NCBI RefSeq assembly: GCF_000312545.1
Contig: NZ_HE997540.1
Location: forward strand, 942,650 to 989,413
Reading direction: 5' to 3'
Origin: Bartonella senegalensis OS02
Lineage (GTDB): Bacteria > Pseudomonadota > Alphaproteobacteria > Rhizobiales > Rhizobiaceae
Length of the DNA: 46,764 nucleotides
Part shown: in pieces, positions 14,811-40,170 of the stretch
Numbering within the stretch: position 1 is the first letter of the stretch
Layout of the letters: each line of letters opens with the position of its first letter
Translations under genes and position numbers: made by a program
The notes under the pieces: generated by a model
The model's input: the letters and a program-made list of their open reading frames with translations, nothing else
Told to the model about the DNA's origin: nothing
Database searches by the model: none

Positions 14811-14983
14811 GTGTTGGTATGCGTTACCCTTTTGGGCAGCACTCGAACAGACTTACTGATTACCTTTTCGCTTATTGTGAAGATAATAGTGCGGCATTTC
14901 GCTTTGGTCTGCAGGCTTCCGGGTGGATTAATACTCTATGGCGTTAAAGTAGTCTTTGGTGTTTTATTCTTTTGTCAGTAGTA

Positions 14984-15094
14984 TTGAGGATGGGCTCCTC
15001 GTTTCATCAATTGAATAAGAGTCCATATCTCTGCGGTTCTGGTTGGGGCGTAGTATCCTATTCCTGAGTTAACAGAGACCGATGCGATTTCTCT
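14984..15094 (+). pseudogene. Decayed pyk fragment
   Basis: About 110 bases resembling pyk 14340-14449. The best block reads CTGCGGTTCTGGTTGGGGCG ... AACAGAGACCGATGCGATTT against the pyk sequence GCGGCTCAGGTTGGGGCA ... AACGGGGACCGATGCGATTT. It is not open in frame. Between the pyk stop and this fragment (14811-14983) I recognised nothing. Confidence 0.6.
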
Positions 15095-15149
15095 TTTTAG
15101 AACAGTCTTGACCAAGCAGTTTTTTCTTCTTTCAAATTCTTGTATGCAC

Positions 15150-15560
15150 AAACAAAAAATTGCCTCTAGAGTTGTTGGGTTGAATAATATATTGATGGTT
15201 GTACAAGAAGATAAGGCAGTTATTGGTGCAGCTGTTGTTGCCGATGCTTTGGTTATGGCTTGAAATTATAGAGCAGCTCCATGCGTGTAAGGTTATCGCA
15301 TTTAAAAAGCTCTGCCGTTAGAATTTAAAATGCACGCGTGGTCACCGCCAAGAAATAACGATATTTCGTATTTTAGAAATTTTAACGGGTGGTTTAAAGC
15401 CTCAAAAAGCAGCTGCAAAGCCAAGAAGAAGCTGCTGTAGTGAAGGAAACAACACAGGAAACGAAAACAGCGACTTCTGTTTAAAAAACTGCAAAAAAAT
15501 TTCTGAGAAAAAGTCTGCATCACAGAAACAAACTGCTGTAGCATCAAAGAGTCAAGAATA
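15150..15560 (+). pseudogene. Decayed rplU (ribosomal protein L21) copy
   Basis: Fragments of L21 can be read with stops and frame changes: [65 protein letters not shown], then the Ala/Lys/Thr-rich tail ([16 protein letters not shown]). The 5' end of the gene is missing. It is followed at normal operon distance by an rpmA relic, so an rplU-rpmA operon segment was copied here. A functional copy must exist elsewhere in the genome since L21 is a core ribosomal protein. Confidence 0.8.
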
Positions 15561-15576
15561 TTACAGGAAAATATCT

Positions 15577-15844
15577 ATGGAACATAAAAAAGCTGGTGGG
15601 TTCTCGCGTAATGATCGCGATTTAGAATCGAAACGTCTTGGCGTTAAAAAATTTGGCGGTGAAGCTGTTATTGCTGGAAATATTCTTGTTCGTCAGCGTG
15701 GTACGCACACACCTTGGTAGCAATGTCGGTATAGGGAGGGATCATACTCTTTTTGCACTCTCCAATGGAATGGTTTCTTTTCAAAAGAAAGCGAATAATC
15801 GTTCGTATGTTTCTGTTGTTACCATGGTGGAGGTTGTAGAATAA
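15577..15844 (+). pseudogene. Frameshifted rpmA (ribosomal protein L27) copy
   Basis: The N-terminal part reads [15 protein letters not shown], then [18 protein letters not shown] and NILVRQRGT, then hits a TAG after THTPW. The rest continues in another frame as [20 protein letters not shown] and ends [11 protein letters not shown] before TAA at 15842-15844. Normal L27 has RQRGT(R/K)[17 protein letters not shown], so the lesion is a small indel near 15710. Compared with the rplU relic it is well preserved, including the AGGAAA before the ATG. It is a duplicate of an essential gene and therefore presumed non-functional. Confidence 0.88.
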
Positions 15845-16302
15845 GCAGTAATATTCTCTGGCAAATAGAATATACTTGTTTATTTATTTAAGAGGAAATC
15901 GACGTGTAAAGAGAACTCGTTTGAACAAAAAGTAAAAAGAGAGTCTCTCAAGCGCTGAAAGGCAAGAGTTGTGGCGATATGGGGTGCTTATCAATATCAT
16001 AATGGATAATGATGATGTTCGCAGGCATTTTTGATGTTGATTTGTAGTTTCACAGTGTAAAAATCGCACTGCAGAGGAGGTTCTTGTATACTCTCTCATG
16101 GTAAGAAATTTTGCATAAAATTACGCTCGTTCATGAAGGGCGCATGCACTTGTCTCTTTTTTTTTAGAAGACACGCTGTTTGTTTGCAGTTATTGCGATT
16201 GAGGCGATTTTTTGACAATCATGCACCGACAATTATAATTATGCTCATTTATACTGGTCTTTGAGTGTTATAGCGCTGGTTTATTGAAGAGGAATAATGC
16301 GT
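15845..16302. other. Non-coding stretch downstream of the rpmA relic
   Basis: About 460 bases between the rpmA relic and zapA. No gene was recognised on either strand. In some alphaproteobacteria 6S RNA lies downstream of zapA. I looked for a long imperfect hairpin on the minus strand here and could not identify one with confidence. Confidence 0.4.
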
Positions 16303-16680
16303 TTAGAGATCTTCCTGTTCTTGCGGAACAAGACTGTTTTGCTCATCTTTGAGTAATTGGCTGGTAAGCTTTTCAATGCGCTTTGTTGTGTCGCGCATAA
16401 TTCTTCCCATCGCCTGCTCTCTTTCATTATGAAGTTGTAAAAGAGATTCGTAGTCTTCTTGTAACTTTTTATTTTCTCTTTTTATTTCTTCCATTTCATC
16501 AAGAATCATAATGCCAGCCATAACTGATAAACGATGGTCACCAATTTCACCAAAATTTTTCTTCAGATGTGTGATATATTGGTCTAATCGAGCCGCAAGC
16601 TCAGTGAGATGGCGTTCTTGCCCTTTATCGCAAGCCATACGATAAACTTTACCATCAATGGTGACGGAAACCGTTTCCAT
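16303..16680 (-). CDS. zapA: Cell division protein ZapA
   Basis: FtsZ-ring-associated protein that crosslinks FtsZ protofilaments. At 125 residues it has normal length. The N-terminal globular part contains VSVTIDGKVYRMACDKGQE and ERHLTELAARLDQYI. The C-terminal part (about 60-110) is a long coiled coil (MILDEMEEIKRENKKLQEDY) that mediates dimerisation. It follows the DUF4164 gene with a gap of about 12 bases on the same strand, a pairing conserved in Rhizobiales next to tkt, so the two are likely one operon. Confidence 0.93.
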   Translation of the reverse strand: METVSVTIDGKVYRMACDKGQERHLTELAARLDQYITHLKKNFGEIGDHRLSVMAGIMILDEMEEIKRENKKLQEDYESLLQLHNEREQAMGRIMRDTTKRIEKLTSQLLKDEQNSLVPQEQEDL

Positions 16681-16692
16681 GTCTTTAAACCT

Positions 16693-16968
16693 TTATCTGT
16701 CAATTACGACACGAATCGTTTCCATTGCTTTAATTAAACGTTTAGAAACTTCTTTATTTACTGCTTCTAGCCGCTCAACTTGCGCTTCAGATTTATCAAG
16801 TGCTTGGGCAAGACGGCTGCGATCCGCGTTCATTCGTTGAATTTCTTCTTCCCATTCATTGTTTTTATCAATAACCGCATTGCGGTTTATAATAGCGATT
16901 TCTAAGGTTCTGAGGGCTTTTTCCAATTGCTCTAAAGTTTGTGATAGAACCGTAGTCTCTTGGTTCAT
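16693..16968 (-). CDS. DUF4164 coiled-coil protein
   Basis: A 91-residue protein predicted to be almost entirely helical coiled coil (LEQLEKALRTLEIAI, RSRLAQALDKSEAQVERLE, SKRLIKAMETIRVVID), matching the DUF4164 family that precedes zapA in Rhizobiales. AAAGGA lies about eleven bases upstream of the ATG. A role in cell division is suggested only by its conserved coupling to zapA. Confidence 0.87.
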   Translation of the reverse strand: MNQETTVLSQTLEQLEKALRTLEIAIINRNAVIDKNNEWEEEIQRMNADRSRLAQALDKSEAQVERLEAVNKEVSKRLIKAMETIRVVIDR

Positions 16969-17301
16969 GATATTTACATCCTTTAAGTAAGTGTATCCTT
17001 TATTAATTCTTTATGCAAAAACGAATCACTCCTTTTCTTTTCTTGTGAAAAGTTCATTTTTAAGTATGTAGGACATTTTAGCAAGTAAAGCAGGGGATAG
17101 CTGTTAATTAAAAGCTGGATTTTTTGACAGTATTGGCATAAATGATATGTGCATAAAGGATGTGTGAGGGGACTGTTACTGAACTGATCGCAAAAGGTCT
17201 CACGCTGACAATTGAAATACACTGAAAAATATTTCTCAGAAAATTGAAGAGAATATGAAAGAACAACAAAATAACGCGTTTAACAAAGTGGTCTATCATT
17301 T
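16969..17301. promoter_or_regulatory. Divergent promoter region between DUF4164-zapA and tkt
   Basis: A 333-base spacer between divergent operons. A TTGACA at 17124-17129 is a possible -35 element for tkt, but no good -10 sits at the right distance, so this is weak. tkt itself lacks a strong ribosome site. Confidence 0.35.
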
Positions 17302-19308
17302 ATGACAAATATCGAACAACAGAAGCAGATGGCGAATGCTATCCGTTTTCTTGCTATTGATGCGATTGAAAAAGCAAATTCTGGTCATCCGGGTTTGCCA
17401 ATGGGGGCAGCCGATATTGCTACCGTCCTTTATACAAAATTTCTTGCTCATGATCCCAAAAATCCTCATTGGCCTAACCGTGATCGTTTTGTATTGTCCG
17501 CTGGCCATGGCTCTATGTTGCTTTATGCGCTCTTGTATCTTTCTGGTTATGAAGATATTTCCCTTGAAGATCTCAAAAATTTCCGACAAATAGGTTTTAA
17601 GGTTGCTGGGCATCCAGAATATGACCATGCTGCCGGAATCGAGACAACCACTGGGCCACTGGGACAAGGATTGGCTAATGCCGTGGGAATGGCACTGGGA
17701 GAGCGCCTGCTTAATGCACGTTTTGGTGATCTCATCAACCATTACACTTACGCGCTGGTTGGCGATGGGTGTCTCATGGAAGGGATTTCACAAGAAGCTC
17801 TTTCCCTTGCTGGACATTTGAAACTCCATAAGCTTATCGTCTTGTGGGACGATAATAACATTTCCATCGATGGAGAAATCTCCCTGGCTGATAGTACAGA
17901 CCAAATAGCCCGTTTTAAGGCTTCTGGTTGGAATACCCTCAAAGTCGATGGACATGATCAAGCAGCAATCGCACAGGCTATTGAGGCAGCACAAAATTCC
18001 GATAAACCAACTTTGATCGCTTGTAAAACAACCATTGGTTTTGGAGCTCCTAATAAAGCTGGAACCAATAAAGTGCATGGAGCGCCTCTTGGCGCATCAG
18101 AAATTGCTGAGACACGTATCGCTTTGGGGTGGGAGGCAGAGCCTTTTGTTATTCCAGCCGATATCCTCGATAATTGGCGCTTGGCTGGTCTCAATGCCGC
18201 TAAAAAACGACAAAAGTGGAAAGAAAAATTTGCCGCTCTACAACTCTCAGAACGCGTGGAGTTTGAAAGATTAATGCGTGGTGATCTCTTGAGCGGATTT
18301 GATGGTGCTATCGATGCTTATAAAAAGAAACTGGTTGAGGAGTGTCCGTGTGTCGCCACCCGTAAAGCTTCGGAAATGGCTCTTGAAGTGATCAATGAAG
18401 TCGTGAGTGAGACGATTGGTGGATCTGCTGACTTGACCGGATCGAATAATACCAAAAGCAGTCAGATGAAAGCGATTTCTGCTGAGAATTTTTCAGGGCG
18501 TTATCTGCATTATGGAATTCGCGAACATGCCATGGGAGCTGTGATGAATGGTCTTGCCCTTTATGGAGGCTTCATTCCTTATGGCGGAACCTTTTTATGT
18601 TTTTCCGACTATATGCGTCCCGCAATGCGTTTGTCTTCTCTTATGGGGGTGCGGGTCATTTATGTTATGACCCATGATTCTATTGGTCTTGGTGAGGATG
18701 GACCGACCCATCAACCGGTGGAGCATTTGGCTTCTTTGCGTGCGCTTCCTAATCATCTTGTTTTCCGTCCTGCTGACGCTATGGAGACTGTCGAGTGTTG
18801 GCAATTGGCTTTGAAAACACGGGGGACGCCCTCTACCTTGGCTTTGAGTAGACAAAATTTACCACTTTTACGCCAGGAATATGAGGAAGAAAATCTTTGT
18901 ATGCTCGGTGCTTATGAATTACTCACAGCAAGTGATGATGCGAAAGTTACCTTGTTTGCTTCCGGTTCAGAATTGCAAATTGCTGTACAAGCACATGCAG
19001 TTTTAGAAGAAAAGGGTGTTCCAACGCGTGTGGTGTCTGTGCCTTGTTTTGAACTCTTTGCACAGCAATCTCTTTCCTATCAGAGCGCTCTCATTGGTGA
19101 TGCACCGATTAAAATTGCCATTGAAGCTGCAATTCGGCAAGGTTGGGAGCGTTTTATCGGTTGTGATGGAGTGTTTATTGGTATGCAAGGATTTGGTGCT
19201 AGTGGCACCATTGATGCGCTTTATAAACATTTCGGCATCACCTGTGAGAATGTGGTTGCTGCTGTTGAAAAAAAGCTTGAAGAAATCAATAAGGAAACTG
19301 TCAAATGA
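17302..19308 (+). CDS. tkt: Transketolase
   Basis: Thiamine-diphosphate enzyme of the non-oxidative pentose phosphate pathway, moving two-carbon ketol units between sugar phosphates. Full length at 668 residues. The N-terminal domain has [32 protein letters not shown] and the ThDP motif [13 protein letters not shown] near 154-166. The pyrimidine domain has [20 protein letters not shown] and [20 protein letters not shown]. The C-terminal domain begins about 535. The stop TGA (19306-19308) overlaps the ATG of a decayed gap 5' end, suggesting that tkt and gap once overlapped by four bases. Confidence 0.97.
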
Positions 19309-19608
19309 GTGTTCATGGTGCCATGAACCGTTTTGATCATTTTGGGGGTGGTCGTTTTTATGCCATTGTGGAAAGTAAACCAATGATTATTGGTGATTCG
19401 GAAAGGATCGAAATAAAGACATCTATGTCGTGCTATAAAAAATCGGCGAGGTCAATGTGAAATGCGTGTCTCTCTTGCAATAAATAGATGTAAACCTCTT
19501 GTAGGCAAGAGTTTGTCTGTTTATCGTTGAATGTGAAAATATTAAGGTTTTAGAAGTGAATGATTTGGGGGTGCTTGGAACTAGTGTACCTCTGTTGTGC
19601 TCTGAAAA
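19305..19608 (+). pseudogene. Two tandem decayed copies of the gap 5' end
   Basis: The spacer between tkt and gap consists almost wholly of two degenerate units resembling the first about 150 bases of gap plus the last bases of tkt. Unit 1 (19305-19435) keeps ATGAGTGTTC, TATGCCATTGTGGAAAGTAA and a matching end. Unit 2 (19436-19608) keeps the upstream GTGAAATGCGTGTC, TTGCAATAAAT, GTGAATGATTTGGG and CTCTGTTGTGCTCTGA. Both contain stops and indels. Confidence 0.75.
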
Positions 19609-19628
19609 ATCGATAAGGAAAATGTCAA

Positions 19629-20636: not shown

Positions 20637-20640
20637 AATG

Positions 20641-20665
20641 AGAGGACCTGCTGGTCCTCTTTTTA
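20641..20665 (+). terminator. Intrinsic terminator after gap
   Basis: Perfect 8-bp stem AGAGGACC / GGTCCTCT with a TGCT loop (20641-20660), followed by TTTTTAT, five bases after the gap stop codon. Classic Rho-independent terminator for the gap transcript. Confidence 0.9.
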
Positions 20666-20914: not shown

Positions 20915-21110
20915 GCAGAAAAAGTTTAAATGAATGCGTTTTTGTTTGAGACAACAGAAAGTGAAGAGAAGAGATTGATGGGCTTTCATAGAGTTGATGT
21001 TGTTGATGTCAACTGAGAAACCTGTTGTTGTACGGAAGAGTGACAGAGAATAAAGGAAGCTTTTTCTTTGATGGAAGATGAAGAGAAAATTGCCTAAGAT
21101 AAGAAGTGAA
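20915..21110 (+). pseudogene. Decayed copy of the pgk 5' end
   Basis: About 190 bases that parallel 21106-21300. It contains the leader GCGTTTTTGTTTGAGACAAC and AGAAAGTGAAGAG, a start region ATGGGCTTTCATAGAGTTGA and GATGTTGTTGATGT, then diverges with a stop (TGA) soon after. The leader is nearly identical to that of intact pgk. From the gap terminator to this fragment (20666-20914) nothing was recognised. Confidence 0.8.
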
Positions 21111-21157
21111 CAGGTGCGTTTTTGTTTGAAACAACAGAAAGTGAAGAGGGAGCAGTG

Positions 21158-22351
21158 ATGGGTTTTCGTACACTTGATGATGTTGATGTGGCAGGGAAAC
21201 GTGTTCTTGTGCGGGTGGATTTTAATGTCCCAATGGCGCAAGGAAAAGTTTGCGATGATACGCGTCTTAAACGACATAAAGAAACGCTCATTGAATTGCA
21301 AAGGTGTGGTGCTAAACTTATTCTTCTTTCCCATTGTGGGCGCCCTAAGGGACAAGTGGAGCCAGAATTTTCGTTGCGTCCCGTTGTGCAAGTGTTGGAA
21401 AAAATAATCGGACAAACGGTGAATTTTGCATCAGATTGTATTGGTGAAGCTGCACAGACAGCCGTTCAATCCTTACAAAATGGCGGTGTTTTATTGCTTG
21501 AAAATGTTCGCTTTCATTCAGGGGAAGAAAAAAATGCTGGTTCTTTTGCTGAGGCTCTTGCTCATAATGGAGATCTTTATGTCAATGATGCTTTTTCAGT
21601 CTCTCATCGTGCCCATGCTTCGGTAGAGGGGATAACACATTTTTTGCCTTCTTATGCGGGGCGTTCTTTGCAGTGTGAATTGCAAGCCTTAGAAAAAGGT
21701 CTTGGTAATCCAACCCGTCCGGTGATCGCAATTGTTGGAGGAGCAAAGGTTTCCAGTAAGCTTTTTGTGCTCAATCATTTGGTTGAAAAGGTCGATTATT
21801 TGGTCATTGGTGGGGGCATGGCCAACAGTTTTTTAGCAGCCAAAGGTGTGCGTGTTGGAAAGTCATTGTGTGAACATGCGTTGATGGAAACAGTAAAAAA
21901 AGTTATTGAAAAGGCAAAGGAATGCAAATGTACGCTTCTGCTTCCTGTCGATGCAATCGTTGGATTTCGCTTTGAAAAAGATGCACCGCATCGTCTCTAT
22001 GATATTGGAGATATTCCTGAAGATGGAATGATTTTGGATATTGGTACACGCTCTATCGCGCATATCAATGCCGTGATCGATAAAGCTGCTACACTCGTAT
22101 GGAACGGACCACTTGGTGTTTTTGAGATGTCTCCTTTTGATCAAGGAACGATTGCAGTGGCATGCCATGCAGCAGAATGTAGCTTGACAGGGAAATTGGT
22201 TTCAATCGCAGGAGGCGGAGATACGGTGTTTGCACTTAATCATGCTGGTGTTGCTGATGATTTTACTTATCTCTCAACCGCAGGTGGGGCCTTTTTGGAA
22301 TGGATGGAAGGCAAGGTACTGCCTGGTATTCTCGCTCTTATGCAGGCTTAA
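21158..22351 (+). CDS. pgk: Phosphoglycerate kinase
   Basis: Converts 1,3-bisphosphoglycerate and ADP to 3-phosphoglycerate and ATP. With the start at 21158 it has 397 residues, the usual length. Motifs: RVLVRVDFNVPM near 16-27, LSHCGRPKG near 60-68, LLENVRFHSGEEKN, VNDAFSVSHRAHAS, IVGGAKVSSK near 193-202, VWNGPLGVFE near 321-330 and AGGGDT near 355-360. I choose ATG 21158 because the conserved MGFRTLDDVDV begins there and GAGGGAG is eight bases upstream; an earlier in-frame start at 21122 would translate the leader. It is flanked by degenerate copies of its own 5' and 3' ends. Confidence 0.97.
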   Translation: MGFRTLDDVDVAGKRVLVRVDFNVPMAQGKVCDDTRLKRHKETLIELQRCGAKLILLSHCGRPKGQVEPEFSLRPVVQVLEKIIGQTVNFASDCIGEAAQTAVQSLQNGGVLLLENVRFHSGEEKNAGSFAEALAHNGDLYVNDAFSVSHRAHASVEGITHFLPSYAGRSLQCELQALEKGLGNPTRPVIAIVGGAKVSSKLFVLNHLVEKVDYLVIGGGMANSFLAAKGVRVGKSLCEHALMETVKKVIEKAKECKCTLLLPVDAIVGFRFEKDAPHRLYDIGDIPEDGMILDIGTRSIAHINAVIDKAATLVWNGPLGVFEMSPFDQGTIAVACHAAECSLTGKLVSIAGGGDTVFALNHAGVADDFTYLSTAGGAFLEWMEGKVLPGILALMQA

Positions 22352-22389
22352 TGGATAAGTTTAGAGGATCAGTTTTGTGGTATAGTTTT

Positions 22390-22508
22390 GTAAGATGGTG
22401 TATTGCTGCTGATTTTACTTCTCTTTCAGCTGCTGGAGAAGGCTTTTGGGGAATGGATGGAAGGTAAGATGCTTTCCGCTATTCTCGCTCTCATGCAAGC
22501 TTAAAGGG
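22390..22508 (+). pseudogene. Decayed copy of the pgk 3' end
   Basis: About 115 bases resembling pgk 22243-22355, including GCTGATTTTACTTCTCTTTC, GGGGAATGGATGGAAGGTAA, TATTCTCGCTCTCATGCAAG and CTTAA. One-base indels break the frame. The remaining spacer to fba contains only the fba ribosome site. Confidence 0.85.
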
Positions 22509-22618
22509 ATTCGTGTGAACGAACAGTTTTAAAAAATGTAACATCATGGCTATGGAGTATATGTGCTGGTGTTTTGCACAGTTTTGGAAGTTAAGACAAG
22601 ATTAAAGAGGAATTTTTT

Positions 22619-23650
22619 ATGAATGAACGTCTTGAAGATATAGCACTTACTCTGGTAAGTGCAGGGAAGGGTATTTTGGCAGCAGATGAAAGTACTGCAA
22701 CGATTGGAAAGCGTTTTGAAAGCATTGGAGTGGAATGCACTGAAGAGAATCGCCGCGCCTATCGTGAAATGCTGTTTACTGCAAAAGAAGCTATGGAAAA
22801 CGCTATCTCTGGTGTTATCTTATTCGATGAAACACTGCGTCAAAAAGCATCTACGGGGCAAATGTTGACCGATCTTATTCGTGATGCAGGTGCTGTGCCA
22901 GGGATTAAAGTCGATACTGGTGCTAAACCCTTGGCGGCTTTTCCTCAAGAAACAATTACAGAAGGGTTGGATGGTCTTCGTGAGCGTTTAAAGGATTACT
23001 ATGCTTTGGGAGCCCGTTTTGCTAAATGGCGTGCGGTGATTGCCATTGATGCATATACTCTTCCAACAAGAGCGGCAATCAGCCAAAATGCACAAGCTTT
23101 GGCGCGCTATGCTGCTTTGTGTCAGGAAGCCGGTCTTGTGCCGATTGTTGAGCCGGAAGTGCTAATGGATGGATTATCCCGTCAGCATTCCATTACGCGC
23201 TGCTTTGAGGTCACAAAAGCTGTTTTACACACTGTGTTTCAAGAATTGTTTGAGGCCCGTGTCCTTTTCGAGGGCATGATTTTAAAGCCCAATATGGTGA
23301 TTGATGGAAAAGATGCGCGCAATGCTTCTGTTGAAGAAGTGGCTGAGAGGACAGTTCATGTTCTTAAAAACACTGTTCCTGCTGCTGTTCCTGGAATTGC
23401 TTTTCTTTCCGGAGGACAGACTGATGAAGAAGCAACAGCACATTTGTCGGCTATGAATGCTTTGGGGACATTGCCTTGGAAATTGACCTTTTCTTATGGG
23501 CGAGCGTTGCAGGCAGCTGCTTTGAAAGCATGGGGTGGGAAAGAGGAAAATGTTGCTGTTGCACGGGAGGCTTTTTGTCATCGCGCCCGAATGAACCACC
23601 TTGCTGCTTTGGGACAATGGACAAAAGAGCAAGAAAAATCTTGTGCTTAA
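22619..23650 (+). CDS. fba: Fructose-bisphosphate aldolase, class I
   Basis: Schiff-base aldolase cleaving fructose-1,6-bisphosphate to dihydroxyacetone phosphate and glyceraldehyde-3-phosphate. It has 343 residues. Motifs: GKGILAADESTATIGKRF near 17-34, GVILFDETLRQ near 65-75, PGIKVDTGAKPLA, FAKWRAVIAI near 134-143, IVEPEVLMDG and the Schiff-base lysine region GMILKPNMVIDGKDA near 218-232. AFLSGGQTDEEAT is near 262. The match is to the class I family used by Rhizobiales, not to zinc-dependent class II. AGAGGAA precedes the ATG. It completes the tkt-gap-pgk-fba cluster. A large decayed copy of its middle and 3' part follows. Confidence 0.96.
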   Translation: MNERLEDIALTLVSAGKGILAADESTATIGKRFESIGVECTEENRRAYREMLFTAKEAMENAISGVILFDETLRQKASTGQMLTDLIRDAGAVPGIKVDTGAKPLAAFPQETITEGLDGLRERLKDYYALGARFAKWRAVIAIDAYTLPTRAAISQNAQALARYAALCQEAGLVPIVEPEVLMDGLSRQHSITRCFEVTKAVLHTVFQELFEARVLFEGMILKPNMVIDGKDARNASVEEVAERTVHVLKNTVPAAVPGIAFLSGGQTDEEATAHLSAMNALGTLPWKLTFSYGRALQAAALKAWGGKEENVAVAREAFCHRARMNHLAALGQWTKEQEKSCA

Positions 23651-23753: not shown

Positions 23754-24240
23754 GTGAGCGTTTAAAGGATTATTATGCTTGTAAGAGCCCCTTTTGCGAA
23801 ATGGCGTGCGGCGATTGCTATTGATGCACATTATTCTCTCAACAAGAGGGGCTATCAGCCAAAATGCACAAGCTCTGGCGCGCTATGCTGCTTGTATGTC
23901 AAGGAAGTTGGTGAAGTGGGTCTTGGACCGATTGTTGAACGGTAAGTGCTGATGGATGGATTATCGTATCAGCATTCCATTAAACGCTGCTTTGAGGTAA
24001 AAAGCCGTTTTACAAACGGTGTTTCAAGAATTGTTTGAATCCGTGTTCTTTTCGAGGGCATGCAGCCCTATAGGGTGCGTTGATGGCAAAGATGTGTCTA
24101 CTTCCTTTGTTGAAGAAGAGACTGAGAGAACAGTTCATGTTCAGAAAAAGATCCATGTTTTTCGATCAACCTGCTGTAAAAAGGCTAAAGGCTCGAAGGG
24201 GAGGGACGTTCAGTATATGGCTTCATTAACTCATATGCGG
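23754..24240 (+). pseudogene. Decayed copy of the middle part of fba
   Basis: About 490 bases resembling fba from 22980 to about 23460. Well-kept blocks include GAGCGTTTAAAGGATTATTA, AAATGGCGTGCGGCGATTGC, CAGCCAAAATGCACAAGCTC, TGCTGATGGATGGATTATCG, GTGTTTCAAGAATTGTTTGA and GAGAACAGTTCATGTTCAGA. Many indels and stops. Similarity fades after the block corresponding to LKNTVPAAVPG. Confidence 0.9.
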
Positions 24241-26079: not shown

Positions 26080-26350
26080 CCAAGGTCTAAAACAGATTAT
26101 CTGCCTGTACTGCGCAATTTTCTTGCCGGAATTTTTATGATTTTGTTTGCAGACTTTTTGTCCGTTACAAAGCTTTTTTATCTGTCATAATCAGAAAAAA
26201 ATTCCATGCCAAGATGAGCAAAACGATTTTTAAATGTAGAAATATGATGATATTACCCAGCAAATTCGCGATCCGTCTGCTCGCTTCTATTGTTTCAGGC
26301 TCATACTCTTGGATCAATCTCCAGATTAAGCATGTTACCTTCTTTTCTTT
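26080..26350 (-). pseudogene. Decayed copy of rpmE and its downstream flank
   Basis: On the plus strand, 26185-26350 parallels 26585-26745: AATCAGAAAAAAATTCCATG against AACCAGAAAAAAGCTTTTAC, then GCAAAACGATTTTTAAATGT, GGATCAATCTCCAGATTAAG and TTACCTTCTTTTCTTTA. Similarity extends into the flank (GTCTAAAACAGATTATCTGC against GTCTAAAACAAATCAACTGC), so the duplicated unit covered the rpmE coding end plus about 100 bases beyond. The frame is broken. Confidence 0.8.
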
Positions 26351-26601: not shown

Positions 26602-26823
26602 TTACATGCCCAAATTACCAAAACGATTTTTAAATTTAGAAATACGACCACCATGGTCGACCAATGTTTGAGATCCACCTGTCCAAGCCGGATGGGTTTT
26701 GGGGTCAATATCCAAATTAAGGACGTCACCTTCTTTACCCCAAGTAGAGCGCGTCGTATATTGGGTGCCATCCGTCATAACAACGGTAATCCTGTGATAG
26801 TTGGGATGAATATTGGCTTTCAT
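26602..26823 (-). CDS. rpmE: Ribosomal protein L31
   Basis: Large-subunit ribosomal protein of 73 residues. [22 protein letters not shown] at the N-terminus, then [27 protein letters not shown] and [11 protein letters not shown] are standard L31. Zinc-binding cysteines are absent, so this is the C-minus form common in alphaproteobacteria. It is transcribed divergently from the ABC exporter and followed by a strong terminator and a decayed duplicate of itself. Confidence 0.95.
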
Positions 26824-32185: not shown

Positions 32186-32215
32186 GGATGTCTCCTCCTC
32201 GTCACAGCTTAAGAG

Positions 32216-32365
32216 TTTTCACATTTTTCTTTTATGATTTCAAGCAGCATTAAAGAATTATCATCTTTAAACGACAATAAATGCACATATGGTTTTTATT
32301 CTCCTCATCACAATTTGCAAAATTGCTTCTTGCTGGTTGTGGGAGGAATTTTTGTCCTTTAAAAA
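32216..32365 (-). pseudogene. Decayed copy of the thiE 3' end
   Basis: On the plus strand 32216-32365 parallels 34255-34410, the 3' end of intact thiE: TTCACATTTTTCTTTTATGA against TTCACATTTTTCTTGCATCA, then AAGCAGCATTAAAGAATTAT against AAGCAGGCTCAAAGGATTAT, later TTGCAAAATTGCTTCTTGCT against TTGCAAAATCGCTTCCTGCT and GGAGGAATTTTT. The frame is broken. It marks the original thiE-Sel1 junction, now split by the XRE/TIR insertion. Confidence 0.75.
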
Positions 32366-33149: not shown

Positions 33150-33895
33150 TTAATGTGATGCAAGGGCAAGTTTTTTTGCATCTATAGTGAATCCAGCTTC
33201 ACATAATCGATCAGCAAGTTTTAGCATCGCTTCTGTTACGCATTTATCAAAAGAAAGGTAGTAAACTCCACGAATATCTGAAGGGATTTCAACGCCTTTT
33301 TTTTGCACAATAGCAATTCTCTCAAGAGGAAGAACGGCGGCTAACATGCCCATTTCGAGAATAACATTTTGTCGTGCACGGGGTTGGGCTGTTTTTTCAC
33401 CCTCAGATTTAGCATAGCCTATGTCATCAGGAGTCAGCAGTACAATACCAAATCCTATAGAATCGTTACAAATTTCTTTTTTAAAGTTTCAATGATGGGT
33501 AAACCGTTACCGCCAGTATTTTGTAAAATATATAGTTCGAGCTCAAGTCTGCGAAGAGAAAGTTCAAGATCTTTTAAAGTGACATGATCATGTCCGTGAA
33601 CGATAAAGATTTTTTTATTTGAGGTATTCGAAAAGATTTTTGGGGAAGGAGTCTTTGAATTTTGTGCTATAGGCTTCGCTAAATCTTCTTTTAGCTTTTT
33701 TGCCGCGGAGTCTTTACCTCGAAAGCTGAGTGTTCCTGTTTTTTCAAACCAAATAATGACTCCTCCACCGAAAGTTTTGATCTGATATGTTCCAGGGGAT
33801 TGATGTGGTAGAAGTTTAGCTTCTATAATGTCATACTCAGCTTCGCAAATTGTCTTTTGAAGATCTTCAAACGTTCCTCTGTATTTATATTCCAT
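33150..33895 (-). pseudogene. Frameshifted TIR-like nucleotide-binding protein (CAP12/PCTIR-type TIR domain)
   Basis: Read across one frameshift this is a single gene of about 248 residues. The first frame (33895-33455) gives a small N-terminal domain (EYKYRGTFEDLQKTI, GTYQIKTFGGGVIIWFEKTG, LSFRGKDSAAKKL), a linker and the start of the TIR-like domain (KKIFIVHGHDHVTLKDLELS, LQNTGGNGLPIIETL). It then ends after KKKFVTIL. The other frame continues exactly where the family should: SIGFGIVLLTPDDIGYAKSE, PRARQNVILEMGMLAA, KGVEIPSDIRGVYYL to the end at 33150. One missing A in the A6 run (plus-strand T6 at 33477-33482) explains it. Related TIR-like proteins act in NAD-depleting anti-phage systems. 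Whether this one is dead, phase-variable or rescued by slippage cannot be told. Confidence 0.85.
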
Positions 33896-34242: not shown

Positions 34243-34905
34243 TTACAAGGGGGCGTTTTCACATTTTTCTTGCATCATTTTAAGCAGGCTCAAAGGATTA
34301 TCGCTCCCCAAAATGACTTCTTCTACAGCTATAAATTCACAGGCGGTCTTTAGCACTTCGCCAAAGGTTGCAAAATCGCTTCCTGCTTGAATAATGGCAG
34401 GAATTTCCATAATTTCTGCCCACCACCCTGCAAGTTGCAAATTGCGAGGGTGCGCATGCGGTTTTTTATCAGCACCTAATTTGCCAAAAAATAGATAGTC
34501 AACACCTGCTTCTCCAGAAACCATCGCACAATGGCGATTGCGAATATTGCCAAAGCCTATGATCTTTTCTGATTTTTTCTGATTATTAAGAAGTTCAAGA
34601 GCTTTAAGATCACCTTCTATATGTACACCATCAGCTTTTATGCGTCCAGCAATGCGACTGTCACCAGAAATGAGAAGAGCAGCACCGTTACTTTGAATAT
34701 CTTGCGCATAGAGTTGTGCTTGTTTTTGTAAAAAAAACGCATCATCTTGCACCCCTTGAGAATCATAGAGAATAATGCACGCAAAGGACTTCGTTTGTAA
34801 AATTTGGCGTAAAAGAGTGGGCTTTAAAGTACGCTGAACATCTAATGTTAAAACCAATTGCGGAAAAGGAGCCTGTTCAACGGGTTTACTCTTTTGTTTT
34901 GTCAT
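34243..34905 (-). CDS. thiE: Thiamine-phosphate synthase-like protein
   Basis: ThiE-family TIM-barrel protein of about 220 residues; ThiE joins the thiazole and pyrimidine phosphates to make thiamine phosphate. Visible family features: QLVLTLDV near 18-25, ADGVHIEGDLKAL near 107-119 (family ADGVHLGQ), IGFGNIRNRHCAM near 130-142, GVDYLFFGKLG near 147-157 and IPAIIQAGSD. It is the divergent rhizobial form, conserved next to the Sel1 protein, so bona fide activity is uncertain. I choose ATG 34905 (MTKQKSKPVEQ), preceded by AAAGGA; the frame is open upstream to 35106 but overlaps the divergent opgC start. The 3' end is duplicated as a relic about 2 kb away. Confidence 0.82.
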   Translation of the reverse strand: MTKQKSKPVEQAPFPQLVLTLDVQRTLKPTLLRQILQTKSFACIILYDSQGVQDDAFFLQKQAQLYAQDIQSNGAALLISGDSRIAGRIKADGVHIEGDLKALELLNNQKKSEKIIGFGNIRNRHCAMVSGEAGVDYLFFGKLGADKKPHAHPRNLQLAGWWAEIMEIPAIIQAGSDFATFGEVLKTACEFIAVEEVILGSDNPLSLLKMMQEKCENAPL

Positions 34906-35005
34906 ATAAAATCCTTTACTCTGAAAAAGAAACTTGACACTGAATGAGTTAACTTTGCATTCTGCTCTGAGAGAGGAATGGTTTTGTAACTTTTGGGGGA
35001 CCGTT

Positions 35006-36151
35006 ATGGCATGCCAAACTGTTTTAAAGCATAATATACATCCTTTTCGTCGTGATACACGCATCGATGTTTTTCGTTCTTTAGCTTTGTTGACAATTTT
35101 CATCAATCATATTCCTGGAACTCTCTATGAATACATAACACATAGAAACTTCGGTTTTTCTGATTCAGCAGAAGTGTTTGTTTTGCTTTCGGGGGTTGCT
35201 CTTGGACTCAGTTTTCATACACGCTTACAGCAGAAGTCTTTTACCTTCATTATGCGTAAACTTTGGCGCAGAGCTTTGCAACTCTATGCCGCATATCTCT
35301 TTACAACCTTTGTAACGTTAAGCCTTTTTTTAGCAGCCTTTTATTTATGGAAAACAGAGCAACTGTTATCAATGAATAATGTGGGTTTATTTTTGACACA
35401 ACCCTTCCTCGCTTTTTTTAGCGCCTTAAGCTTTGGACATCAATTGGGGTATAATAATATTCTGCCCCTTTATATTGTACTCATGCTTTTTGCACCTTTT
35501 GCGCTGTATTTGAGTTGTAAACAAAAAGGACTGTTGCTGTTGGGCTCGTTCATGCTCTACATCTTCAGCGGATTTTATGAAATTGCTCCTCCTTCTTATC
35601 CATTAGAAGGAAAGTGGTTTTTGAATCCTTTGTCTTGGCAATTCCTGTTTATTATAGGATTAACGAGCAGTTTATTTCTTCAACAAGGAAAAAATATTGT
35701 CTTTCAGACTTTTTTTGTCGTTTTTGCCGCCGCGTACCTTTTGCTTTCATTGCTCTGGGTCCGTTTAGATTGGTGGGGCGTTTTGGGGTGGCTTGGCTGG
35801 TCCTCCCCCTTGCTTAATTTTAATAAAACATTTTTAAGTTTGCCCCGTCTACTCCATATCATTGCGTTAGCATTCTTTATCCTCTGTTTGCCGCGTTTGA
35901 ATGCCTGGTTTCAGGTTTCAGAAAAGCATCCCTTAGCAATTTTAGGAAAACACAGTCTTCCAGTCTTTGTAACGGGGACTGTTTTTGCTATGGTAGGGCA
36001 GATTTTAAAAACAGTGATGACAACAACCTTTTTTTCCGATAGCCTCTTGATTATCAGTGGTATTGCTCTGCAATTTTCGGTCGCCTACTTTTGTGAAAAA
36101 CGCCTATCAATTCATCGGTTTTCCGCAAGAAAACCTCTCCGTTTGTCATGA
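35006..36151 (+). CDS. opgC: OpgC-family membrane acyltransferase-like protein
   Basis: Polytopic inner-membrane protein of 381 residues of the OpgC family, which in other bacteria succinylates or otherwise modifies periplasmic glucans. The N-terminal signature DTRIDVFRSLALLTIFINHI is followed by GFSDSAEVFVLLSGVALGLS. About ten hydrophobic segments span the rest (AAYLFTTFVTLSLFLAAFYL, ILPLYIVLMLFAPFALYL, FLFIIGLTSSLFL and so on). The ATG at 35006 follows GGGGGACC; the frame extends upstream to 34934 without a better start. It is divergent from thiE with a spacer of only 100 bases. The glucan substrate is inferred from family. Confidence 0.85.
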   Translation: MACQTVLKHNIHPFRRDTRIDVFRSLALLTIFINHIPGTLYEYITHRNFGFSDSAEVFVLLSGVALGLSFHTRLQQKSFTFIMRKLWRRALQLYAAYLFTTFVTLSLFLAAFYLWKTEQLLSMNNVGLFLTQPFLAFFSALSFGHQLGYNNILPLYIVLMLFAPFALYLSCKQKGLLLLGSFMLYIFSGFYEIAPPSYPLEGKWFLNPLSWQFLFIIGLTSSLFLQQGKNIVFQTFFVVFAAAYLLLSLLWVRLDWWGVLGWLGWSSPLLNFNKTFLSLPRLLHIIALAFFILCLPRLNAWFQVSEKHPLAILGKHSLPVFVTGTVFAMVGQILKTVMTTTFFSDSLLIISGIALQFSVAYFCEKRLSIHRFSARKPLRLS

Positions 36152-36314
36152 CGCTCGATGACACGTTAACCTTAGTATAAGAAGCACATTGCGCAAAAGT
36201 TTAAAAAGAGGTACTCATTAAAAAAAGCATTCTGTTCAGCAGGAAAAGAAACTTTTTAACTTTCATTTCGTTTGAGTGTTGTAATTTTTGTGCTGATATT
36301 TGGAGTATAAAAGT

Positions 36315-36833
36315 GTGAGTGCCTATAAACGTCCCTATGATGAACCCATTATCATGGTTGAGCATAATGCTTTTGACAATGCTTTTAACCGCCTTTACGA
36401 AGAAACAATGGCGTTGATTGAAGAAACGGCAACTTATATTGATACGGAAGGCAAATTAGCAACACGTTCTCTCTCTGCAGAAGTTTCTGCTCTTTATGCT
36501 AAAGAGGCGATGTATTTAAGTACGAGGCTTATGCAAATCGCTTCTCAACTTCTGCTTCTTCGTGCAGAGCGTGAGGGGGAAATGTCACCAGAACAAATAC
36601 AAAAAGAACTTGCCAAAGTCTCGCTTCATACACCAACGCTGAGACTAGAAAGCGTTCATTGGCAAGAATTTCCAGAAGTCTTCCGCGACTTTGTCGCTCG
36701 TTCTCTTCGTTTAGAAGCGCGCATGCAATATTTACGTAACGGCAGGGAAGGCGTTGATTCCTCTGTTTTGGAGGACGACAATCCGGTGGGTAAACAAATT
36801 GAATTGCTTAAAACAGCTTTTCGGCGCTCTTAG
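36315..36833 (+). CDS. DUF1465 family protein
   Basis: A 172-residue mostly helical protein of the DUF1465 family, found upstream of ruvCAB in Rhizobiales. Core stretches: AFNRLYEETMALIEETATY, YAKEAMYLSTRLMQIASQLL, LLLRAEREGEMSPEQIQKE and EARMQYLRNGREGVD. I choose GTG 36315 because GGAG lies nine bases upstream; the frame also has a TTG at 36300. A mutant phenotype of a relative is not something I can cite, and the function is unknown. Its last 75 bases and the following spacer are repeated downstream. Confidence 0.87.
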   Translation: MSAYKRPYDEPIIMVEHNAFDNAFNRLYEETMALIEETATYIDTEGKLATRSLSAEVSALYAKEAMYLSTRLMQIASQLLLLRAEREGEMSPEQIQKELAKVSLHTPTLRLESVHWQEFPEVFRDFVARSLRLEARMQYLRNGREGVDSSVLEDDNPVGKQIELLKTAFRRS

Positions 36834-37186
36834 AAATTTTGTAGCTGTTGTTTTTTTCTCCATTCCGTTTGGGATGCTGTCTCTATGAGAGTTGATTTCG
36901 GTACAATTCCTCTATTTTCTCTGTTCCATTGTTTTATACTTTACTTTGTTAATTTTTTTTGCCTCGCCATTTTACTCAAACGCGTGAAAAGCGTAGAGCT
37001 TTATTTTAGGGCGGGGCGTTTGTTGTTAAAGGGGCTGGCGCTTTTTGAAAGGGGTTTTTGAAAGGGAAGGGCGATTCGTGTTAAGAGAATGGCACCCCTT
37101 ATTTTATTGATAGGTGCATGTGCAATATTTGTGTTCTGAGAGATGTGTCTTCTTTATGTTTGCGAAGATAATTTATGTTTGCGAAG

Positions 37187-37510
37187 ATAAAGCTGTTTTG
37201 GAGGACGATAATCTGGTGGGTAAACAAATCGAATTACTTAAAACAGCTTTTCGGCGCTCTTAGAAATTTTATAGCTGTTGTTTTTTTCTCCATTCCGTTT
37301 GGGATGCTGTCTCTATGAGAGTTGATTTCGGTACAATTCCTCTATTTTCTCTGTTCCATTGTTTTATACTTTACTTTGTTAATTTTTTTTGCCTCGCCAT
37401 TTTACTCAAACGCGTGAAAAGCGTAGAGCTTTATTTTAGGGCGGGGCGTTTGTTATTAAAGGGGCTGGCGCTTTTTGAAGGGAGGCTTTTGAAGGGAAGG
37501 GCGGTTGGCA
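37187..37510 (+). repeat. Second copy of the DUF1465 3' end plus downstream spacer
   Basis: 37189-37510 repeats 36757-37080 with few differences. It covers the last 22 or so codons of the DUF1465 gene including its TAG, then about 230 bases of spacer that look nearly identical (for example TTCTCCATTCCGTTTGGGAT and TTTATTTTAGGGCGGGGCGT in both). Coding differences are mostly at third positions. Just before it is a 19-base tandem (TTTATGTTTGCGAAGATAA twice, 37155-37192). A hydrophobic frame of about 60-85 codons starts in both copies but has no family. Confidence 0.9.
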
Positions 37511-37534
37511 TTGAGCGAATGGGTTCTTCTTTTT

Positions 37535-37660
37535 TGTTCAGAAGCGTGCATGCAAGATTTGCGCACCTATAGGGAAGGCGTCTCTTCCCTTGTTGTCGAA
37601 GACGACAGTGTCTCGAAGGACGACAATCGCGTGGGCAGACAAATCGGATTCTATCCTTCT
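37535..37660 (+). pseudogene. Third, older copy of the DUF1465 3' end
   Basis: Resembles 36710-36815: GAAGCGTGCATGCAAGATTT, GGGAAGGCGTCTCTTCC, GAGGACGACA-type repeats and GTGGGCAGACAAATCGGATT, corresponding to REARMQYL...GREGVDSS...DDNPVGKQIEL. An insertion repeats the acidic segment. It leads into the ruvC start region. Confidence 0.75.
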
Positions 37661-37721
37661 TTCGTGTTCTTTGCTTTCGTGCATCTGTTCAAATACGCAA
37701 AAAGTGTATAAACTTCGCTCT

Positions 37722-38231
37722 ATGGCAGAGACGATTCGTATTATAGGCATTGATCCCGGGTTACGGCGAACAGGATGGGGGGTTATCGATTTTTCTGGCA
37801 ATCGTCTTCAATTTGTTGCAGCAGGTACGCTTTCTTCTGATGCGCGCTGCGACGTCGCTTCTAGACTCTCTCAGCTTTACAAAGGGCTGGTAGATGTTTT
37901 GCATCGATTTATGCCTCATGAAGCCGCTGTGGAACATGTATTTGTCAACAAGGATGCTACGGCAACTTTAAAACTTGGTCAAGCACGCGCCATTGCACTT
38001 CTTGCTCCAGCGCAGGCAAATCTGCCTGTTTTTGAATATGCGCCGAACAAAGTGAAAAAATCAGTTATTGGCGTTGGTCATGGTGATAAGGAACAAATTC
38101 ACATGATGGTGAAAGTTCTTCTCCCGCATGCTGAATTCGATAGCAGTGATGCTGCCGATGCGCTTGCCCTGGCCCTTTGCCATAGTAGTCATCGCATCAG
38201 TGCTGCTCATCGTGCAAGGATTATGGCATGA
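37722..38231 (+). CDS. ruvC: Holliday junction endonuclease RuvC
   Basis: Resolves Holliday junctions by symmetric cleavage, acting with RuvAB. It has 169 residues. Catalytic acidic residues are in place: [15 protein letters not shown] near 9-23, [10 protein letters not shown] near 67-76 and the C-terminal [12 protein letters not shown] plus [14 protein letters not shown] near 141-154. The frame is open upstream to 37590 through a duplicated DUF1465 fragment, but the family start [13 protein letters not shown] is at 37722. The stop overlaps the ruvA start (ATGA). Confidence 0.96.
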
Positions 38232-38845
38232 TTGGCAAATTAAAAGGTATCCTTGAACATATCTTTGATGATCATATCATTGTGAATGTTCAGGGGGTGG
38301 GCTATGTGGTTTTTATTTCAAATCGTCTCCGTCCTTCTTTACCTGCTTTGGGTGAGAGTTTAAGTTTGTTTATTGAAACCCATGTTCGTGAAGACGCTAT
38401 CCGCCTTTTTGGTTTTGTTGCGAAAGCGGAACAAGAATGGTTTTGTCTGTTGCAAAATGTGCCCGGTGTAGGAGCAAAAGTCGCTTTGGCAATTTTGGGA
38501 ACTTTATCGCCAGATGAACTCGCACAGGCGATTGCCTTAAACGATATTGCAATGATTAGTCGTGCTCCAGGCGTTGGTAAAAAAGTGAGTGAAAGAATTG
38601 TGAGCGAACTGAAGAGCAAAGCTCTCCCTTTTAGTGAAAAGGTGATTCCTAGCACTCCACTGCCTCATTTGGAGGTGACCAATCAACCGACAAATGATGC
38701 ACTTTCCGCTTTGATCAAACTTGGTTTTGAACGTGATCAAGCAGCCAGGGCTCTTGCTGTAGCGGTGAACAATCTTGAAGGGGAGACGCTTTCCTCTGCA
38801 CTGCTTATTCGCCATAGTCTTAAATTGCTTTCTCCTCCTATTTAA
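38228..38845 (+). CDS. ruvA: Holliday junction helicase subunit RuvA
   Basis: Junction-binding subunit of the RuvAB branch-migration motor, 205 residues. Domain I begins [19 protein letters not shown]. Two helix-hairpin-helix motifs are at [13 protein letters not shown] and [16 protein letters not shown] (about 78-130). Domain III at the C-terminus ([20 protein letters not shown]) contacts RuvB. The start overlaps ruvC by four bases, and ruvB follows after 12 bases. Confidence 0.96.
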
Positions 38846-38857
38846 CGCAAGGTAACA

Positions 38858-39952
38858 ATGCATAAAGATGAAGATCAACGCCTTTTGGATGCTGTCCCAC
38901 TTCCCAATGATCCAGATCGCTCCTTAAGACCACAAGTGCTCGATGATTTTATTGGTCAAGAGGCGGCACGTGCCAATTTAAAAATATTTATTGAAGCGGC
39001 AAAAGCGCGTCAACAAGCACTCGACCATGTTTTGTTTGTAGGACCACCCGGTTTGGGCAAAACAACGCTTTCACAAATTATGGCCAAAGAATTAGGAGTT
39101 AATTTTCGCTCTACCTCGGGTCCTGTTATCGCTAAGGCGGGAGATTTGGCAGCTCTCTTAACCAATCTAGAAGAGCGCGATGTTTTATTTATTGATGAAA
39201 TTCATCGTTTAAGTCCCGCTATTGAAGAAATTCTTTATCCAGCCATGGAAGATTATCAGCTTGATCTTATTATTGGTGAGGGACCAGCTGCACGTTCGGT
39301 GAAAATTGATCTTGCTAAATTCACTTTGGTGGCGGCAACCACGCGTTTGGGACTTTTAACCACGCCTTTGCGAGATCGTTTTGGTATCCCCATTCGATTG
39401 AATTTTTATACTATAGAGGAATTGGAGTATATCGTTCAGCGGAATGCTCGGCTTTTTTCGGTACAGATCAGTGAGGATGGAGCTCATGAAATTGCACGCC
39501 GAGCACGCGGTACTCCACGGATTGCTGGACGACTTTTACGGCGGGTCTGTGATTTTGCTCTCGTCAAAAGGGCAAAAAAAATTGACCGAAAAATTGCTGA
39601 TGAAGCACTGTCTCGTCTGGAAGTTGATCATCTCGGGCTCGATCCACTTGACCGTCGTTATTTGTTGCTGATTGCACAAACTTTTTTAGGTGGTCCAGTG
39701 GGGATTGAAACCATTGCTGCTGCTCTTTCAGAACCGCGGGATGCTATTGAAGATATTATTGAACCCTATCTTCTCCAACAAGGTTTTATTCAGCGAACTG
39801 CCCGCGGGAGAATTCTGCATCAAAAAGCTTGGAGCCATTTGAGGCTTTGTGCCCCAGCTTCCACGGTTTCAACACAAAAGCATCCTCAGCTGTTCGATAT
39901 GCCAGAGGATGCAGCGCGCCAAACAATTTTATCGGATGATGTTGATGATTGA
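38858..39952 (+). CDS. ruvB: Holliday junction helicase ATPase RuvB
   Basis: AAA+ motor of branch migration, 364 residues. Walker [14 protein letters not shown] is near 66-78, Walker [12 protein letters not shown] near 113-123 and sensor 1/arginine-finger stretch [19 protein letters not shown] near 165-183. The C-terminal winged helix has GVxIETIAxxL-type sequence ([15 protein letters not shown]) and [17 protein letters not shown] precedes the ATG. It belongs to the ruvCAB operon. A decayed copy of its 3' end follows. Confidence 0.97.
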
Positions 39953-39984
39953 AATTTCCTTTTTCAAGAGTTGTCATGCATATG

Positions 39985-40130
39985 TTTTGCATGAGAGGAT
40001 ATTGTGGATTATAAGCTCCTTGTCTGCGGGCAAATTTTGCACCAAAAAGATTGGAGCCATTTGAGGCTTTGTGCTCCATCCAGTTTCCACGGTTTTAACA
40101 CAAAAGCATGTTCAATTGCTCAAGACGCTC
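39985..40130 (+). pseudogene. Decayed copy of the ruvB 3' end
   Basis: Resembles ruvB 39755-39905. Conserved blocks: TCTGCGGGCAAATTTTGCAC, AAAAAGATTGGAGCCATTTG, AGGCTTTGTGCTCCATCCAG, TTTCCACGGTTTTAACACAA and AAGCATGTTCA. Frame broken. It occupies most of the ruvB-ybgC spacer. Confidence 0.88.
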
Positions 40131-40170
40131 AATAATTCATTATGATAGACGACTTTATAGGATGAAGCCG

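What the first reader, a model, noticed from the sequence alone, without database searches (positions are those of the whole stretch)
14811..40170. Spacers filled with decayed copies of neighbouring gene ends: repeated junction-spanning tandem duplication
Seen directly: relics of the gap 5' end (19305-19608, two units), pgk 5' end (20915-21110), pgk 3' end (22390-22508), fba (23754-24240), rpmE 3' end (26080-26350), thiE 3' end (32216-32365), DUF1465 3' end (37187-37510, 37535-37660), ruvB 3' end (39985-40130) and a pyk piece (14984-15094). Each lies on the same strand as its parent and close to it. Tandem duplication of a segment spanning a gene junction leaves both genes whole and puts extra junction DNA between them. 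That would make such duplications nearly neutral and slowly inflate spacers. It would explain why this genome has long AT-rich spacers without obvious foreign DNA. I know Bartonella genomes have low coding density, but I do not know of this mechanism being described as its general cause.
Basis: partly seen in the sequence, partly recalled or inferred. Interest (0 to 1): 0.78.

Follow-up and report, generated by a model that had tools for sequence, protein, structure and literature searches.

The report
Decayed tandem duplications near phage origin
The long gaps between genes in this stretch of a Bartonella genome are partly made of worn-out copies of the neighbouring genes' ends, and such copies cluster around a captured phage replication origin that over-copies this part of the chromosome, which suggests that the over-copying slowly pads the genome with junk.

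Summary
Confirmed: at eight of the nine listed sites a spacer holds a same-strand copy of part of the gene beside it; the thiE copy is weak and 2 kb from its parent. Matches to flanking genes are several hundred times commoner than to unrelated genes and almost never inverted. Relatives show tandem duplication across gene junctions: the tkt/gap overlap (-4 bp) became -4 + D in four species, ruvC/ruvA 13 + D in two genomes, ruvB-ybgC 43 bp mostly about 43 + 222. A fresh array in one relative suggests later exchange between gene and relic.

The generalisation fails: in this genome the copies concentrate within about 225 kb of the run-off replication (ROR) phage origin (22 of 131 spacers with a single-copy neighbour, against 5 of 298). 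A second genome agrees (8/66 against 2/75). Two other ROR-bearing genomes show no significant gene-relic excess. A bee-gut relative with the gene transfer agent but no ROR genes has no hotspot (0 of 171 spacers).

Best explanation: ROR over-replication raises local tandem duplication, and junction-spanning copies survive because both genes stay whole. Duplication is shown; ROR causation is inferred. My nine searches listed no report of it.

The parts
14366..14449 (+). pyk parent segment
15009..15094 (+). relic of pyk interior/3' part (78%, offset 643)
   Evidence: pyk relics at several offsets in other Bartonella
19278..19376 (+). relic unit 1: tkt last bases plus gap 5' end (75%, offset 325)
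   Evidence: 13 species with a long tkt-gap spacer align over this unit; a direct match to gap passes the threshold in 8 of the 13
19377..19602 (+). second, more decayed copy of the tkt/gap junction unit
   Evidence: alignment of tkt-gap spacers
20935..21035 (+). relic of pgk 5' end (82%, offset 180); parent 21115-21214
22400..22530 (+). relic of pgk 3' end (76%, offset 152); parent 22248-22376; found only in the window among 20 loci
   Evidence: spacer 267 bp here, 78-150 bp in the 19 others including B. koehlerae (108)
23754..24149 (+). relic of fba 362-752 (81%, offset 774); parent 22980-23370
   Evidence: frame broken by stops
26177..26345 (-). relic pieces of rpmE 3' end (81-83%, offsets about 391-400); parent gene 26602-26778
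32215..32351 (-). weak relic of thiE 3' end (83% over 48 bp, 71% over 77 bp); parent 34255-34406, not in a flanking spacer
37193..37522 (+). relic of DUF1465 3' end plus spacer (95%, offset 430); parent 36763-37092
37533..37650 (+). older relic of DUF1465 3' end (76-82%)
40026..40109 (+). relic of ruvB 3' end (86%, offset 222; protein-level match 39995-40172); parent 39804-39883
45562..45707 (+). non-coding direct copy of 45240-45385 (86%, offset 322) after tolB
4528..4576 (+). direct copy of 4335-4383 (78%) after the sigma-factor gene 3412-4323

Best explanation
Short tandem duplications (about 150-775 bp) arise across gene junctions and gene ends. They leave both neighbours whole, so they persist, and the extra copy decays in the enlarged spacer. 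While enough homology remains, unequal exchange (or conversion) between gene and relic can renew or multiply the relic. In this genome and in a second, probably lineage-4, genome (G036) these events are concentrated within about 225 kb of the phage-derived run-off replication (ROR) origin; the window lies about 50-100 kb from it. The most likely cause is over-replication from ROR: nested forks, broken ends and many local sister copies raise both the founding duplications and the later exchanges. Shown: tandem origin, same-strand flank specificity, polarity, regional concentration, and no hotspot in one ROR-less relative. Inferred: that ROR activity is the cause, and the exact joining reaction.
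For: Additive accounting: tkt-gap is -4 bp in sp. F02 and B. melophagi and 1 bp in B. bacilliformis. It equals D-4 exactly in four species (175/179, 170/174, 169/173, 180/184; D). The 13 species with the long spacer lie on one side of one branch, support 100/99. ruvB-ybgC is 43 bp in B. bacilliformis, F02 and two bee-clade loci, and 240-452 bp in 29 of 30 loci (the window and the 29 best other ruvB matches), most near 43+222. ruvC-ruvA of 333 = 13+320 and 572 = 13+559. Regional effect: direct local matches involving non-coding DNA per 100 kb non-coding fall 118, 72, 75, 41, 14, 10 with distance from ROR in G000; inverted matches in the zone 4 against 99 direct. Spacers with a relic of a single-copy neighbour 22/131 in the zone, 5/298 outside, p=2e-8; G036 8/66 against 2/75, p=0.03. 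Protein-level test: 19/156 against 7/467 genes, and 10/74 against 2/128 in G036. It is not simply nearness to the chromosomal origin: 81.7 against 13.1 per 100 kb on the two sides of the skew switch. ROR-less clade: G052 0/86 and 0/85 spacers although a BaGTA terminase is present and matches to ROR exonuclease and primase-helicase are not. Two control genes outside the zone: no same-strand partial copy beside the parent in the listed rows of 61 genomes, two problem assemblies (G054, G060) aside; the list of the second gene was capped. fba 13 of 61 and pyk 11 of 53 by my count of the full lists. Exchange: in L246 two extra fba 3' copies are 66-76% identical to the gene over the first ~100 columns, then 92-100%.
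Against: Two other ROR-bearing genomes, G004 and G050, show no significant excess of gene relics in the zone (2/84 against 0/84; 2/101 against 2/86; protein level 2/115 against 1/138 and 1/133 against 1/138). The cruder count is also not significant over the whole zone (p=0.22 and 0.16); within 100 kb p=0.076 and 0.003. So ROR presence alone is not enough. The zone also holds more imported and repeated genes, which the single-copy filter only partly removes. The bee-gut comparison is one genome beyond a long branch; it has 5 cruder matches in the compared zone, 72 outside (71 in one array) and 2 of 149 genes with a near copy outside it at protein level. Most high-identity pairs are not adjacent: 14 of 56 are adjacent or show significant tandem-register extension; I read this as decay plus renewal, but it was not predicted. 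pyk relics give a mixed picture: 3 of 5 at offset about 346 are closest to their own parent, 2 are not, and the two vinsonii relics are closest to each other. One L4-like genome (L084 = G051) has the short 43-bp ruvB spacer. Longer core-core spacers in the zone reach significance in 2 of 8 genome comparisons (G000-G052 p=0.003, G000-G004 p=0.036) and not in 6. Published B. henselae data found low recombination and only a minor rise of synonymous change in the amplified segment (PMC3483213, passages).
Confidence: 0.6

Rival explanations
1. Survival bias only: tandem duplications form everywhere at the same rate but persist in this zone because it is a gene-poor, weakly constrained high-plasticity zone.
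For: The zone is poorer in genes (non-coding 0.40 against 0.27) and is described as a high plasticity zone with imported islands (PMC2697382, passages).
Against: Relics sit at tight housekeeping junctions (tkt/gap, ruvC/ruvA, pgk/fba) where constraint should match operons elsewhere; two control genes outside show none in the listed rows of 61 genomes apart from two problem assemblies; conserved core-core junctions in the zone are longer than outside in G000 against G052 (mean +114 against -57 bp, p=0.003), though 6 of 8 comparisons are not significant.
Confidence: 0.2
2. Gene-transfer-agent import: packaged 14-kb fragments, richest in zone DNA, are joined in recipients by homology at one end and illegitimately at the other, leaving local direct duplications.
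For: Particle DNA follows the amplification profile (PMC2697382, passages); relics follow the same region.
Against: G052 has a BaGTA terminase but no hotspot in the sampled stretches; however its particles would not be enriched for this zone, so this does not exclude the idea.
Confidence: 0.25
3. The copies are selected, for example as regulatory 5' or 3' segments, or are remnants of selected gene-family expansion.
For: Secretion-system families in this region are tandemly duplicated (PMC3610622, passages); L118 in this genome, outside the zone, holds repeated matches among neighbouring genes as a gene family would.
Against: Relics are partial, often broken by stops, differ in length and end points between species, and occur next to single-copy housekeeping genes. 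Conservation of the relics above neutral rates was not tested.
Confidence: 0.05
4. Chance similarity in AT-rich DNA or assembly error.
For: None found beyond short matches at about 35 bits.
Against: Background 4 of 57,033 pairs, strict strand bias; aligned tkt-gap spacers in 13 species.
Confidence: 0.01

Closest known systems
Founder tandem duplication and amplification by unequal sister-chromatid exchange; over-replication ('replification') as a source of tandem duplications (PMC5053440, passages)
   Same: Head-to-tail direct copies, later renewal and multiplication by homologous exchange, and a predicted link between a locally over-firing origin and tandem duplications.
   Different: The passages treat models of duplication and amplification in living cells; here are small, fixed, decaying ones that record the process over species history around a domesticated phage origin.
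Bartonella run-off replication / high plasticity zone (PMC2697382, PMC3610622, PMC6899734; passages, and section 19 of PMC3610622)
   Same: Same region, same graded profile around the phage origin; raised GC, more imports and less synteny were already reported there.
   Different: In the passages I saw, spacer growth by duplicated ends of housekeeping genes is not mentioned. B. grahamii pseudogenes were noted as mostly remnants of full-length genes, without a duplication mechanism in those passages.
Gene remnants in long spacers of ant-associated Bartonellaceae (PMC6044324, passages)
   Same: Long spacers in relatives hold gene remnants.
   Different: There read as genes being shed; here copies of genes that are still whole next door.
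Tandem duplication-random loss in animal mitochondrial genomes (search listing only)
   Same: Segment duplication across gene borders leaving decayed copies in spacers.
   Different: There whole genes duplicate and order changes (recalled); here mostly gene ends duplicate and order is kept.

Membership tests
Tandem duplication | copies direct and beside the parent | tested here: met
   20/386 same strand against 1/386 inverted; 99 against 4 in the zone
Tandem duplication | insert length equals repeat offset at an orthologous junction lacking it | tested here: met
   for tkt-gap, ruvC-ruvA and ruvB-ybgC; exact in several genomes, off by up to about 26 bp in others, and not measurable where no relic was detected
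Tandem duplication | recent high-identity copies head to tail without a gap | tested here: inconclusive
   14 of 56 high-identity pairs adjacent or tandem-extended; head-to-tail arrays in L246 and L247
Amplification by unequal exchange | chimeric units, abrupt identity change, constant period | tested here: met
   L246 66-76% then 92-100%; L247 period 346 (array only, no chimera tested)
Feature of the ROR-amplified zone | density peaks near ROR and falls with distance | tested here: met
   for G000 (118, 72, 75, 41, 14, 10) and G036 (102, 121, 99, 41, 0, 29)
Feature of the ROR-amplified zone | same in every ROR-bearing genome | tested here: not met
   no significant gene-relic excess in G004 and G050
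Feature of the ROR-amplified zone | no hotspot where ROR is absent | tested here: met
   one genome: G052 0 of 171 spacers, protein level 0/153 in the compared zone and 2/149 outside; fba locus: 2 of 61 outgroup loci and 1 of 3 bee-clade loci (L018, non-coding array) with a direct match
Tandem duplication-random loss (mitochondrial) | gene order changes by complementary loss | tested here: not met
   gene order tkt-gap-pgk-fba kept in the window and 19 Bartonella loci

The most novel reading that the evidence does not exclude
A domesticated phage origin acts as a regional, inherited mutator of genome architecture: over-replication drives continuous junction-spanning tandem duplication and re-amplification over about 400 kb, opening tight operon junctions (tkt/gap, ruvC/ruvA) and padding spacers, most strongly in the radiating lineage.
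Probability: 0.5. Interest if true: 0.82.

Novelty: new variant of a known kind. Interest (0 to 1): 0.72.

Why it matters
Long spacers in bacterial genomes are usually put down to decaying genes and weak deletion. Here a specific source of new spacer DNA is visible, with a location, a polarity and a candidate engine. It turns the proposal that local over-replication causes tandem duplications into something that can be counted in genome sequences, and it suggests that the ROR region has a structural cost for housekeeping operons as well as a proposed benefit for secretion genes.

Tried and rejected
Nearness to the chromosomal origin: rejected. Gene families as the whole explanation: reduced by the single-copy filter. 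Simple age-by-identity dating: abandoned, since fba relics are closest to their own parent in 7 of 8 species and tied in one, pyk relics are mixed, and high-identity pairs are patchy. Junction microhomology: not resolved; only two of the 56 pairs were labelled adjacent. rRNA landmarks: one Rfam search of six stretches gave only a tRNA. In one search minus-strand loci were mis-oriented; one search repeats it corrected. One search stopped with an error at an all-N stretch after printing the stretches before it. Dropped before counting: stretches with 8,000 or fewer unmasked bases (L147, L148); spacers under 80 bp or with 20% or more N; junction pairs with N or changed relative strand; my counts leave out parents split over contigs or broken (fba: G032, G035, G054; pyk: G026, G040, G054) and one pyk copy 3.8 kb away (G028). 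Genes come from a small coding-score predictor written here, not from curated annotation.
Full report
WHAT WAS CHECKED. The window is G000:C1:942650-989413 of a 2.0-Mb, 41-contig Bartonella genome; B. koehlerae is the nearest named relative at fba (93% protein identity). The thiE one is weak and 2 kb from its parent. Against 57,033 spacer/gene pairs from different stretches (4 same-strand and 5 inverted hits), flanking genes are hit in 20 of 386 pairs on the same strand and 1 of 386 inverted.

HOW THEY AROSE. Relatives give the order of events. tkt and gap overlap by 4 bp in sp. F02 and B. melophagi, are 1 bp apart in B. bacilliformis, 32-33 bp in three bee-gut loci and 49 bp in sp. WD12.1. 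In 13 species the spacer is 159-398 bp and aligns as a repeat of the last bases of tkt and about 145 bp of gap; a direct match to gap passes the threshold in 8 of the 13. In four of these the spacer is exactly the repeat offset minus 4. The 13 form one side of a branch with support 100/99. ruvB-ybgC is 43 bp in two bee-clade loci, B. bacilliformis, F02 and L084, 187 in B. melophagi and 423 in WD12.1; in the window and 28 of the 29 other ruvB loci (the best matches, not all 61 genomes) it is 240-452, with a ruvB 3' relic detected in 12 of the 30. ruvC-ruvA, -4 or 13 bp in most, is 333 = 13+320 and 572 = 13+559 in two. The pgk 3' relic is unique to the window among 20 loci: its spacer is 267 bp against 78-150 in the 19 others.

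NOT JUST DECAY. For fba, the relic is closest to its own parent in 7 of 8 species (narrowly in the window, 86 against 85%) and tied in B. fuyuanensis; for pyk the picture is mixed. In G056 fba is followed by two further 3' copies at a period of about 634. They are 66-76% identical to the gene over about 100 columns, then 92-100%. In G049 the pyk 3' end forms an array of period 346. The simplest reading of the fba case is an old relic that has exchanged with its gene. It could also explain why most high-identity pairs are not adjacent: only 14 of 56 are adjacent or show tandem-register extension. Conversion and unequal crossing-over are not separated here.

WHERE THEY ARE. In 54 usable stretches of this genome, 15 within 225 kb of ROR hold 99 direct matches involving non-coding DNA (16.5% of non-coding bases) and 39 others hold 21 (2.3%). 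With distance the density falls 118, 72, 75, 41, 14, 10 per 100 kb of non-coding DNA. ROR was placed by its YqaJ exonuclease at C1:1042997-1043764 and a Toprim/AAA primase-helicase at C1:1035229-1037328; a BaGTA-type terminase is 34 kb further on. The exonuclease match in G004 falls on the coordinates printed for B. australis (table in PMC3610622, passage). Published B. grahamii amplification reaches from this region to ori and peaks at the phage helicase (PMC2697382, passages). Restricting to single-copy neighbours leaves 22 of 131 against 5 of 298 spacers (p=2e-8); G036 gives 8/66 against 2/75 (p=0.03); a protein-level search agrees for these two genomes. Some 'rest' contigs of this draft may in truth belong to the far side of the zone, which would only weaken the contrast.

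RESULTS AGAINST. G004 and G050 have ROR but no significant gene-relic excess; the cruder count is not significant over the whole zone and gives p=0.076 and 0.003 within 100 kb. In 61 genomes fba and pyk relics are almost confined to lineage 4 (lineage assigned by me from shared relics and recalled taxonomy, not by a tree of all 61). Core-core junction lengths favour the zone in 2 of 8 comparisons only. A published B. henselae study saw low recombination and only a minor rise of synonymous change in the amplified segment (PMC3483213, passages). So ROR presence is at best necessary; lineage 4 must add something, perhaps stronger amplification or weaker deletion.

CONTROLS. Its cruder count is 5 in the compared zone and 72 outside, 71 of them one array (L244); at protein level 0 of 153 genes in the compared zone and 2 of 149 outside have a near copy. 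The fba locus: 15 of 16 ROR-bearing loci, 1 of 3 bee-clade loci and 2 of 61 outgroup loci hold a direct match. Two genes outside the zone: no adjacent partial copies in the listed rows of 61 genomes apart from two problem assemblies, G054 and G060; the list of the second was capped.

KNOWN OR NEW. Tandem duplication with unequal exchange is textbook, and over-replication has been proposed to produce tandem duplications (PMC5053440, passages). ROR-linked GC rise, imports and synteny loss are published (PMC3610622 section 19). Nine full-text searches listed no paper whose title or shown abstract describes this spacer content. I looked into seven of the listed papers by passages, one of them also by a whole section; the rest were seen as listings only. 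Most subscription papers, including the first B. henselae genome paper (recalled), are outside that library.

Noticed in passing
window 42293-43128: 48-bp coding tandem repeat (13 overlapping registers listed) inside ORF 41990-43663, between tolR-like and tolB genes.
   Followed up: no
window 46656-46764: Array of the 8-bp unit CCTCAGCA running to the window end.
   Followed up: no
window 33150-33895: CAP12/Pycsar TIR domain matched in two pieces on two minus-strand ORFs (33150-33353 above and 33455-33895 just below the Pfam cut-off), apparently a broken gene.
   Followed up: partly
G036:C1:2152750-2153323: Two extra copies of residues 1-68 of the ROR primase-helicase lie just upstream of the gene at 370-bp spacing.
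   Followed up: no
L084 (G051): Short 43-bp ruvB-ybgC spacer in a genome whose genes look lineage-4-like; loss of the relic by exact excision is possible.
   Followed up: no
L244 (G052:C1:2020001-2040000): Large direct-repeat array, 71 matches, about 45 kb or more from the BaGTA terminase of a ROR-less genome.
   Followed up: partly
L130, L137-L141 (C1:1000001-1115077): Predicted coding fraction falls to 0.2-0.55 around ROR and BaGTA, with many non-coding direct repeats of unidentified origin.
   Followed up: partly
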